Below, in pieces: positions 20,536 through 23,996 of a stretch of DNA of 64,000 bases. The stretch is taken from contig DAICZP010000117.1 in the NCBI GenBank assembly GCA_027311065.1, forward strand, positions 45,923 through 109,922, written 5' to 3'. Both the position numbers and the translations under genes were made by a program. Each line of letters opens with the position of its first letter. Position 1 is the stretch's first letter. The notes beneath the pieces are model-generated. The model saw nothing but the letters and a program-made list of their open reading frames with translations. It was not told the DNA's origin and made no database searches. This DNA comes from Thiomonas sp. (GTDB lineage: Bacteria; Pseudomonadota; Gammaproteobacteria; Burkholderiales; Burkholderiaceae_C).

Positions 20536-21450
20536 TCAGAGACCGCTCGGTACCCGATGCGATTGCAAGTCGGCACGCATGCGCGCATCTTCGGCGAGCA
20601 AGGACGCACGCTGCGTCGCCTGCATGGGCGCCGCGTCCACGTCCTGGTCCACTTGCGTCAGGTCGGCCAGGGCTGCGTCCCATTGCCCGAGGTGCGAATG
20701 CGCGGCGATGGCAATGCGGGCAAACGCGCGGCGCTTGGGCAGTGTGTCCATTGCCGTGAACTGGCTGACGTAACGATCCGTGAAACGCGCGACAACAGCG
20801 TCCTGGCCATGGGCCAGCAGGCCTTGCAGGACGCGATGCAGGCTGACCGCGTCGGCGCGCGGTTGCAGCAGCGCGGCAAGACGCTGCGTTGCCGCTGCCG
20901 CGTTGCCATGGGCGTATTGCTGCAACGCCTCAAGCGCCTCCATGCGTTCCCGCGCCACGGGGTCAAGCCTTCCCGCCAGCGGCGCACATTGCGCACGCGC
21001 CTGCCGGGTCACGTCCTCGGATGGCGCGGACGCGAAAAAGGCGGTATCCAGAGCCACGTGGCAGGCCGCGCGCTGACGCGCCCCCCGGGTGACGGAGCGC
21101 AACGGAACCTGGACCACCAGGAGCAGCAGCAACGCGCCAGCGACGGTGAACTGGCGCCCCTGACGCCAGAGCCCGATCAGTAGAAGCGCAAGGGACAACG
21201 CCGCCGTGACAAGTCCGAGCCCCGGCAATCCGGCGTGCAAGGCCAGATTGAAATTCAGCGGGTAGCCGAGTAGGGCTCCCGCGGCCATGACCAGTCCCGT
21301 CCAGGGGGCGACGAAGGCCTGCGCGGACGCGTGGATGGAGGGCGCCAGGACCGTGACAGCGACCAGGTTGCACAGATAGAGCGTCATGCCGGCAAGCATT
21401 CCGCCCACCACGGCGCGCGCGACCGCGCGTCCGACCGTTGCCTGCTTCAT
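20536..21450 (-). CDS. Hypothetical membrane protein
   Basis: At least three N-terminal TM segments (LAGMTLYLCNLVAVTVL; LVTAALSLALLLIGL; VAGALLLLLVVQVPL) and a soluble helical C-terminus. Confidence 0.75.
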   Translation of the reverse strand: MKQATVGRAVARAVVGGMLAGMTLYLCNLVAVTVLAPSIHASAQAFVAPWTGLVMAAGALLGYPLNFNLALHAGLPGLGLVTAALSLALLLIGLWRQGRQFTVAGALLLLLVVQVPLRSVTRGARQRAACHVALDTAFFASAPSEDVTRQARAQCAPLAGRLDPVARERMEALEALQQYAHGNAAAATQRLAALLQPRADAVSLHRVLQGLLAHGQDAVVARFTDRYVSQFTAMDTLPKRRAFARIAIAAHSHLGQWDAALADLTQVDQDVDAAPMQATQRASLLAEDARMRADLQSHRVPSGL

Positions 21451-21484: not shown

Positions 21485-22612
21485 TCAATCCAGCACGGGC
21501 AGCGCCGGTTCGTCGGTTTCGAGGCCCGCGACACTTCCACATCCGGGCGTTTCCATCACATCCACCCGTCTGAGTTGGGGCAAGACTTGCGCCGTCGTGC
21601 GCAAAATCCAGGTAGCCAGCGATCCGGTGTCGGCCCCGGTCAAGCCATCGATCTCCGGCAAGGAACGATGATCCAACGCCTTGAACACGGGATCGAACAA
21701 GGTCCTGACGTCCCCGTAGTCGACAATCCAGCCCTGCACGGCGTCGAGCGGCGCCCGCAACTGGAGTCGCAGATCATAGGTATGGCCATGCAACCGGGAC
21801 TCCGGGGCCGTTGGCGGCGCATGCGCGAGCCGTACCGCACTGTCGAAGCTGAAGTCTTTCCAGATTCGCCACGCATGTCCATCGAAGTTCGCCCCGGCGG
21901 ACGCGGTTTCGAACACAGTGACCGAGGCGCATGCGGGCAGCGTGGCGTGCAAGCGCCGCCACAACCAGGCGGCGAGCATCTCGCTGGTCGGATTGTCGAG
22001 GCCTTCGAGGTCGTTGAGGCAACAGAAATCAAGCACACCTCGCAACGGCTCCCATGCCGCGTCGATGACGGCGAACTCGGTACCTGCGTGGACCCAGGCG
22101 TGGACCACCACTTCGAAACCATGGCCGTGCATCCGTCCGCACTTGTGGCCCGGCGGCACGCGTGGCAGCCAGTGCGCCGCCTGAAATGCGTAGCGCCGCC
22201 AGATCTGTGCACGGCCGTCGGCGTCGATGTCCACCCCTTGCGTCGAGGTGCTGCGCAGCGCGACGCGCACGCGACCGGCGACCCCGAGGCGGGTGCCGAT
22301 CCAGCGTGCCAGCGACAGGTCATCGGGGTTGTCGATCCATTGATTCAGGTACGAGTAGTCCAGCGGCGCGACGGCGTCACGCAAACGCTGACCGAGCATG
22401 ACCACCTCGCCGCCCGGAAACGTGGCCTCGGCATCCGCGGCGAACACAGAGACCTTGAAACCATGTCCGTGCAAACCGCGCCCGCGCGGTGCCTGCGGCG
22501 ACGGATCGAAGTGCCGCGCCGCTTCAAATCCGGCCGCTGCCGTGGTCCAGACATCCGCCCGCCTCGCGCCGTCACCGCCTCCAATGTTGCTGTTCCCCGC
22601 GCCCGCCATCAT
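21485..22612 (-). CDS. Triple-domain 6-pyruvoyl-tetrahydropterin synthase / QueD-like fusion
   Basis: Three consecutive PTPS-like repeats each with HGH core: RGLHGHGFKV, CGRMHGHGFEV, SRLHGHTYDL; NPTSEMLAAWLW and LDHRSL signatures. Confidence 0.9.
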   Translation of the reverse strand: MMAGAGNSNIGGGDGARRADVWTTAAAGFEAARHFDPSPQAPRGRGLHGHGFKVSVFAADAEATFPGGEVVMLGQRLRDAVAPLDYSYLNQWIDNPDDLSLARWIGTRLGVAGRVRVALRSTSTQGVDIDADGRAQIWRRYAFQAAHWLPRVPPGHKCGRMHGHGFEVVVHAWVHAGTEFAVIDAAWEPLRGVLDFCCLNDLEGLDNPTSEMLAAWLWRRLHATLPACASVTVFETASAGANFDGHAWRIWKDFSFDSAVRLAHAPPTAPESRLHGHTYDLRLQLRAPLDAVQGWIVDYGDVRTLFDPVFKALDHRSLPEIDGLTGADTGSLATWILRTTAQVLPQLRRVDVMETPGCGSVAGLETDEPALPVLD

Positions 22613-22872: not shown

Positions 22873-23307
22873 ATGAAGCTCACGTCGTTCTCGGATTTCG
22901 GTCTGCGCGCGCTGCTGGTGCTGGGTAGCAGCAGCAGCGCGAGTTGGTCCAGCGCCGAGCTCGCGGCAAAGCTCGAGGTGTCAAGGGATCATCTGGTCAA
23001 GGTGCTGCAGCGTCTGGCTGCCGGCGGCTACGTCGCCACCACGCGCGGCGCCGGCGGCGGCGTGGCACTGGCGTGCGCCCCCGACGAAATCCGCCTCGGC
23101 GAGGTGCTGGCGTGGCTGGAGCAAGGACAGGTGATCACCGAGTGCTTTCGGGCCGATCAGGGGCATTGCGTGCTCACGCCGCACTGCGCGCTGCGCTCGC
23201 GCCTGGAACGGGCGCGGCGGGCGTTCTATGCCGAACTCGACAGCAGCTCCCTCGCCGACTGCCTCACAACGCAGTTGCACGCCTTCGTCGACACGACCCC
23301 CGTCTGA
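22873..23307 (+). CDS. nsrR: Rrf2-family Fe-S transcriptional regulator, NsrR-like
   Basis: MKLTSFSDFGLRALLVLG; three-Cys cluster ECFRADQGHCVLTPHCALRS. Confidence 0.9.
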   Translation: MKLTSFSDFGLRALLVLGSSSSASWSSAELAAKLEVSRDHLVKVLQRLAAGGYVATTRGAGGGVALACAPDEIRLGEVLAWLEQGQVITECFRADQGHCVLTPHCALRSRLERARRAFYAELDSSSLADCLTTQLHAFVDTTPV

Positions 23308-23444: not shown

Positions 23445-23996
23445 TCAATCAGATCCTGGCAGGGCAACGCCGCGGCGCTCGCGCATGGCACGCCCGATGG
23501 CGTCAAGCGCGACGTCACCCAGCAGGTGCGCAGCCATCGGCAGCAGTTCCGTTTGCTCGACCGCCATGTGCGCCGCATACGCCGCGCTGAATTCGCGCGC
23601 CGCCGCCGGATCCAGTACGCCCGCGTTGCCGCCCTCGACCGCCTGCAGCGCGGCATCCACCTTGGCCCACATGGCCTCGAGGTGGCGGTGCTCGGCACGC
23701 AAGCGCTCGGTCAGCTGGCGAATGCACACCGCATCCGATCCCGCCATCGACTCGAGCAGCGCGGGGAACAGGTCCTGCTCCTCGTCGGCGTGATGGTGCA
23801 CAGCGGCGGTACCGAAATACCGGCGGATCGCTGCAGCGACTTCACGTGCATCAGCATCGGCGCCGACGCGGCCGAGATGCTCAGCCAACCGGATCAGCGT
23901 GGCGCATTGCGATTCGATGCGCCCGTGACAGGCGGCAAGCATTTCCAGTGGCACCTCAAAACCGGTTGCCATCGCTGGCGTATGGCTGATCTGCAT
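23445..23996 (-). CDS. Hemerythrin domain-containing protein
   Basis: CHGRIESQC; HHHADEEQDLFPALLES; LRAEHRHLEAMW; AAHMAVEQTELLPMA. Confidence 0.92.
   Translation of the reverse strand: MQISHTPAMATGFEVPLEMLAACHGRIESQCATLIRLAEHLGRVGADADAREVAAAIRRYFGTAAVHHHADEEQDLFPALLESMAGSDAVCIRQLTERLRAEHRHLEAMWAKVDAALQAVEGGNAGVLDPAAAREFSAAYAAHMAVEQTELLPMAAHLLGDVALDAIGRAMRERRGVALPGSD

What the first reader, a model, noticed from the sequence alone, without database searches (positions are those of the whole stretch)
21485..22612. Three tandem PTPS/QueD domains in one polypeptide, with catalytic residues apparently partitioned between domains
Seen: three consecutive PTPS-like repeats in 375 aa. By my count, only repeat 2 keeps the full zinc set (AAH147, H162-G-H164) and the Cys of the Cxx(x)HGH region (C158, KCGRMHGH). 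Repeats 1 and 3 lack that Cys (RGRGLHGH, PESRLHGH), and repeat 3 lacks the first His (FDSAVRL). Conversely, the Asp-His pair (LDH in typical PTPS/QueD) is present only in repeat 3 (ALDHRSL, D314-H315); repeat 1 has LDYSYL and repeat 2 has LDFCCL. Known: PTPS/QueD are oligomers built from trimers, with active sites at subunit interfaces and a Cys/Asp/His catalytic set. Inference: the fusion may be a pseudo-trimer with one composite active site (zinc and Cys from domain 2, Asp-His from domain 3) and a scaffold-only domain 1. It may therefore have changed stoichiometry or chemistry.
Basis: partly seen in the sequence, partly recalled or inferred. Interest (0 to 1): 0.78.

Follow-up and report, generated by a model that had tools for sequence, protein, structure and literature searches.

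The report
Three-in-one queuosine enzyme, one active site
The gene makes an enzyme for a tRNA modification (queuosine) in which three copies of a domain that normally assembles as separate chains are fused into one protein, and only one shared active site, built from pieces of two of the copies, has been kept; the arrangement is widespread in proteobacteria.

Summary
Window 21485-22612 (minus strand) encodes 375 aa with three PF01242 (PTPS/QueD) domains. Domain 2 alone keeps the three zinc histidines, the CxxxHGH cysteine and the invariant ET glutamate. Domain 3 alone keeps Asp-His.

This is an old, fixed pattern and not local decay. In 106 fusion proteins, H147/C158/H162/H164/E235 of domain 2 and D314-H315 of domain 3 are invariant. 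Domain 2's own Asp-His is intact in 32 and domain 1's in 26. The first zinc His is never present in domains 1 or 3. The pattern held in about 21 members fetched afterwards.

The protein is most likely QueD. In relatives, queE lies immediately downstream in 82 of 103 loci and queC immediately upstream in 39 of 105. The own genome has QueC, QueE, QueF and Tgt, and no other PTPS was found. A family-alignment AlphaFold model (pLDDT 90.6, pTM 0.89) gives three well-packed T-folds.

So it is a single-chain QueD pseudo-trimer with one composite site per chain. Changed chemistry is not supported. Whether domain 3 donates Asp-His within the chain or to a partner chain is unresolved: no coordinates were available. 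Bimodular QueF is the closest precedent.

The parts
21485..22612 (-). Triple-PTPS fusion gene, predicted single-chain QueD (6-carboxytetrahydropterin synthase), 375 aa
   Evidence: operon context of relatives
22214..22555 (-). Domain 1 (residues 20-133): T-fold without first zinc His (R33), Cys, or anchor Glu; HGH kept
   Evidence: NCBIfam QueD 18.1 bits on its own
21872..22213 (-). Domain 2 (residues 134-247): complete zinc set, Cys and Glu; own Asp-His lost (D195-F196)
   Evidence: NCBIfam QueD 52.7 bits on its own
21524..21871 (-). Domain 3 (residues 248-363): carries the Asp-His; first zinc His (V260) and Cys lost
   Evidence: NCBIfam QueD 56.6 bits on its own
22121..22150 (-). GHKCGRMHGH: catalytic C158 and zinc ligands H162, H164 (PTPS-I/QueD motif CxxxHGH)
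   Evidence: invariant in 106/106; motif definition in PMC5041015
22172..22174 (-). H147, first zinc ligand of domain 2
   Evidence: 106/106
21908..21910 (-). E235, expected pterin-anchoring Glu of domain 2
   Evidence: 106/106; role by homology
21668..21673 (-). D314-H315, the only Asp-His pair of the protein, in domain 3
   Evidence: 106/106
22025..22030 (-). D195-F196, decayed Asp-His position of domain 2
   Evidence: Asp-His intact in only 32 of 106 relatives

Best explanation
The gene is the queD of this organism. It makes a single-chain QueD in which the usual homotrimer of T-fold subunits has become one polypeptide of three tandem domains (pseudo-trimer). After fusion the three equivalent active sites were free to diverge and only one was kept. 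Domain 2 holds the zinc (H147, H162, H164), the catalytic C158 and the substrate-anchoring E235. Domain 3 supplies the D314-H315 pair. Together they convert 7,8-dihydroneopterin triphosphate to 6-carboxytetrahydropterin for queuosine synthesis by QueE, QueC, QueF and Tgt. Two chains probably pair head to head in place of the QueD hexamer, giving two sites per particle instead of six. Shown here: the sequence features, their invariance, the operon context and the confident three-T-fold model. Inferred: that the two half-sites meet, the pairing of chains, the site count and the chemistry. Not decided: whether D314-H315 serves the zinc site of its own chain or of the partner chain.
For: Three PF01242 domains. 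In 106 fusion proteins, down to about 41% identity to the window protein, domain 2 H147/C158/H162/H164/E235 and domain 3 D314/H315 are 106/106; Asp-His is intact in domain 1 in 26 and in domain 2 in 32; the first zinc His is 0/106 in domains 1 and 3. About 21 of these were fetched after the pattern was formulated and all fit. queE lies directly downstream on the same strand in 82 of 103 loci, queC directly upstream in 39 of 105, both in 36. The own genome has QueC, QueE above its curated cut-off, QueF and Tgt, and its only PTPS matches are the fusion. All 27 fusion-bearing genomes among the 61 examined carry QueC, one of them in broken pieces beside the fusion; only one also has a separate PTPS with the Cys motif. 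AlphaFold with 72 family members: pLDDT 90.6, pTM 0.89, three T-folds in order. Best solved match is E. coli QueD, TM 0.9 over one domain. PTPS has an 'intersubunit catalytic triad' (title of Burgisser 1995, quoted in PMC7546909 and PMC10767420).
Against: No coordinates were available, so the C158 to D314/H315 distance was not measured. The model is a monomer. Foldseek matched single domains; it did not show ring closure. No single domain reaches the curated QueD score (best 56.6 against 89.25 bits); only the sum, 117.6, does. In the window itself the gene is not beside other que genes. The own genome is 92% complete, so a missed standalone queD cannot be excluded.
Confidence: 0.86

Rival explanations
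1. The composite site is formed between two chains: domain 2 of one pseudo-trimer with domain 3 of the head-to-head partner, so the monomer is inactive and the dimer has two sites. This is a variant of the best explanation and differs from the reader's within-chain picture.
For: PTPS sites are built from three monomers in a head-to-head pair of trimers (PMC7546909). From memory, the original rat structure assigns Cys42 and Glu133 to one subunit and His89 to a subunit called B, which may be the other trimer; that paper was not available here. A two-fold axis through domain 1 would place domain 2 opposite domain 3 of the partner.
Against: Nothing here separates within-chain from between-chain; domains 2 and 3 are also neighbours in the ring.
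Confidence: 0.45
2. Domain 2 is an ordinary self-sufficient QueD site, and the conserved Asp-His of domain 3 is structural or serves something else.
For: Domain 2 keeps zinc set, Cys and Glu; 32 of 106 relatives keep Asp-His in domain 2.
Against: Domain 2's own Asp-His is lost in 74 of 106, the window included, while domain 3's is never lost. In PTPS the triad is intersubunit.
Confidence: 0.06
3. The fusion does a different reaction (folate-type PTPS-III, biopterin-type PTPS-II, or new chemistry).
For: Catalytic residues are redistributed; several congeners carry a separate Cys-less PTPS, which in the genomes checked lies beside queE.
Against: CxxxHGH is the QueD signature; ExxHGH (PTPS-III) and CxxxxxHGH (PTPS-II) are absent. 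queE/queC operon context. The own genome has no other PTPS match but has QueC, QueE, QueF and Tgt.
Confidence: 0.05
4. The fusion is a decaying gene whose apparent partition is accidental loss in one lineage.
For: Some congeners have a stop-interrupted second copy or fragments of the fusion (G003, G011, G012, G015).
Against: The same partition is invariant in 106 sequences; each domain forms its own group in a tree, so the order is old.
Confidence: 0.02

Closest known systems
QueD / PTPS-I (6-carboxytetrahydropterin synthase; E. coli QueD 4ntk, P. aeruginosa 2oba)
   Same: Fold of each domain, CxxxHGH motif, zinc His set, Asp-His, Glu, queC/queE neighbourhood
   Different: QueD is one domain per chain with a complete residue set in every chain; here three domains are fused and the set is split between domains 2 and 3
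Bimodular QueF (V. cholerae, E. coli)
   Same: Tandem T-folds in one chain with the catalytic elements separated into different domains that form one interdomain site; homodimer with two sites (PMC5372742)
   Different: Two domains, nitrile reductase, no zinc site described; QueF motif in one half and Cys/Glu in the other
Uricase and GTP cyclohydrolase IB
   Same: More than one T-fold per chain; weak Foldseek matches across most of the model
   Different: Two T-folds, unrelated chemistry, no QueD residue set
Mammalian PTPS (PTPS-II)
   Same: Zinc plus intersubunit Cys-Asp-His triad, head-to-head trimers
   Different: Single domain, CxxxxxHGH motif, biopterin pathway

Membership tests
QueD / PTPS-I | CxxxHGH motif | tested here: met
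   C158-GRM-H162GH164 in domain 2; Cys and both His 106/106 in relatives; motif from PMC5041015
QueD / PTPS-I | Three zinc histidines in one domain | tested here: met
   Domain 2 only: H147, H162, H164, 106/106
QueD / PTPS-I | Asp-His in the same domain as zinc and Cys | tested here: not met
   In the window only domain 3 has Asp-His (D314-H315); domain 2 has D195-F196
QueD / PTPS-I | Curated NCBIfam QueD score (TIGR03367, 89.25 bits) | tested here: met
   Whole protein 117.6 bits, but by summing; single domains 18.1, 52.7 and 56.6
QueD / PTPS-I | Genomic link to queuosine genes | tested here: met
   Relatives: queE adjacent 82/103, queC adjacent 39/105; not adjacent in the window itself
QueD / PTPS-I | Homohexamer with six active sites | not testable with these tools
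   Oligomeric state not measurable; the residue count predicts one site per chain
QueD / PTPS-I | Makes 6-carboxytetrahydropterin | not testable with these tools
   Needs assay
PTPS-III (folate) | ExxHGH motif | tested here: not met
   Domain 2 G159-RM-HGH, domain 1 R45-GL-HGH, domain 3 S272-RL-HGH
PTPS-II (biopterin) | CxxxxxHGH motif | tested here: not met
   In domain 2 the Cys has three residues between it and HGH, and there is no Cys in the loop of the window's domains 1 and 3
Bimodular QueF | QueF family profile | tested here: not met
   No QueF match on the fusion; the own genome has a separate QueF

The most novel reading that the evidence does not exclude
The fusion is an obligate dimer of pseudo-trimers whose two active sites form between chains, and domain 1 is not only scaffold but has kept a second pocket (HGH, D98, S121 conserved, usually Gln in place of the anchor Glu) that binds a pterin or 7-deazaguanine and regulates the enzyme.
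Probability: 0.12. Interest if true: 0.65.

Novelty: new variant of a known kind. Interest (0 to 1): 0.52.

Why it matters
It is a natural case of a homotrimeric enzyme becoming one chain and then shedding two of three equivalent sites, with the surviving site split between two repeats. It makes the intersubunit Asp-His role in QueD/PTPS directly testable: in the fusion each half-site can be mutated separately in one gene, which a homohexamer does not allow. It also warns that one-domain score cut-offs can miss or misjudge this QueD, and it parallels bimodular QueF, a later step of the same pathway.

Tried and rejected
AlphaFold on the single sequence gave a useless model (pLDDT 37.9); the family alignment repaired this. 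A plasmid search gave no record covering 80% of the fusion. A first neighbourhood clustering was blurred by shadow reading frames and missed queE; a direct search with the own genome's QueE found it. TIGR04349 was the wrong QueE model (51 bits); TIGR04508 is the right one. Two key papers looked up (on COG0720 and on E. coli QueD) were not held. Paper searches found no description of a triple fusion, but the library lacks most subscription journals, and the architecture may be listed in domain databases. A folate or biopterin role was rejected on motif and context. Decay was rejected on invariance.

Full report
What is there. The minus strand of 21485-22612 holds one open gene of 375 codons with three PF01242 domains. 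Domain 1 also lacks the first zinc His, and domain 2 alone keeps the invariant ET glutamate.

Is the partition more than chance? Eighty-four full-length fusions were read from loci. About 21 more came from a class-wide sample in which roughly 22 of 370 genomes (about 6%) carry a long match across the fusion. Over 106 sequences, domain 2 H147, C158, H162, H164 and E235 and domain 3 D314 and H315 never change. Asp-His is intact in 26 first domains and 32 second domains. The first zinc His is absent from all first and third domains. The later, more distant set, down to about 41% identity, was read after the pattern had been stated and fits without exception. In a tree each domain forms its own group with good support, so the three-domain order is old.

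What it does. In relatives the fusion sits in a queuosine operon: queE directly downstream in 82 of 103 loci with room for it, queC directly upstream in 39 of 105, both in 36; in three loci QueF also follows. The own genome has QueC, QueE above its curated cut-off, QueF and Tgt, and no PTPS match other than the fusion. Of the 61 genomes examined, all 27 with the fusion carry QueC (in one, broken into pieces just upstream of the fusion), and only one has a second PTPS with the Cys motif (counted by hand from the tables). Domain 2's CxxxHGH is the signature of PTPS-I/QueD, not of the folate or biopterin types (PMC5041015). I conclude that the fusion is QueD.

How it works. QueD and PTPS are head-to-head pairs of trimers with zinc sites between subunits (for PTPS: PMC7546909), and the Cys-Asp-His triad of PTPS was described as intersubunit (title of Burgisser 1995, quoted there and in PMC10767420). 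A fusion of three copies can therefore keep a single working site made of the zinc/Cys/Glu half of one domain and the Asp-His half of another. The conservation identifies these halves as domains 2 and 3. The family-alignment AlphaFold model is confident throughout the three T-folds (pLDDT 90.6, pTM 0.89), which suggests a fixed mutual packing, and single domains match E. coli QueD at TM 0.9.

What stays open. Sequence cannot tell whether domain 3 serves domain 2 of the same chain or of the partner chain. My recollection of the rat structure (His89 from a subunit named B, near the trimer-trimer interface) makes the second possible; it is a lead only. Domain 1 is probably not inert: H48, G49, H50, D98 and S121 are conserved in at least 103 of 106, and a Gln usually replaces the anchor Glu, though the window has R120.

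Compared with what is known. QueD is the family by motif, context and summed score, but two features of known QueDs differ: a complete residue set in one domain (tested, not met) and a six-site homohexamer (not testable here). The nearest precedent for the mechanism is bimodular QueF, where the catalytic elements are separated in two tandem T-folds and join to form an interdomain site (PMC5372742). I found no paper on a triple QueD. I class it as a new variant of a known kind.

Noticed in passing
L014, L016, L017, L018, L023, L025 (genomes G030, G021, G001, G014, G011, G031): A short standalone PTPS lacks both the CxxxHGH Cys (SLRVHGH) and the anchor Glu (WREA), yet in G001, G011, G021, G030 and G031 it lies about 10-40 bases downstream of QueE on the same strand. 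In G021, G030 and G031 it is the only PTPS although QueC and QueE are present: a QueD without the catalytic Cys, or a missing enzyme.
   Followed up: partly
G008, G032, G033, G055, G058: Near-complete genomes with QueC but no PTPS match; G008 also has QueE, the others have no match to the TIGR04508 QueE model. How they make the QueC substrate is unclear.
   Followed up: partly
G003 contig 1:4676-5689; G011 contig 4:642045-642290: A second fusion copy interrupted by TAA, with a queC fragment just upstream, and a stretch that resembles only domain 3 of the fusion: partial or decaying copies in the same genus.
   Followed up: no
window 20536-21450, minus strand: An apparent membrane protein of about 300 aa starts 34 bases after the fusion stop with AGGA before its ATG, so it is probably co-transcribed; no family above cut-off.
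   Followed up: no
window 22873-23307 (+) and 23445-23996 (-): An Rrf2-type regulator diverges from the fusion, next to a possible iron-sulfur-repair-like protein (RIC model, below cut-off); a promoter-like site for the fusion lies at 22858-22831.
   Followed up: no
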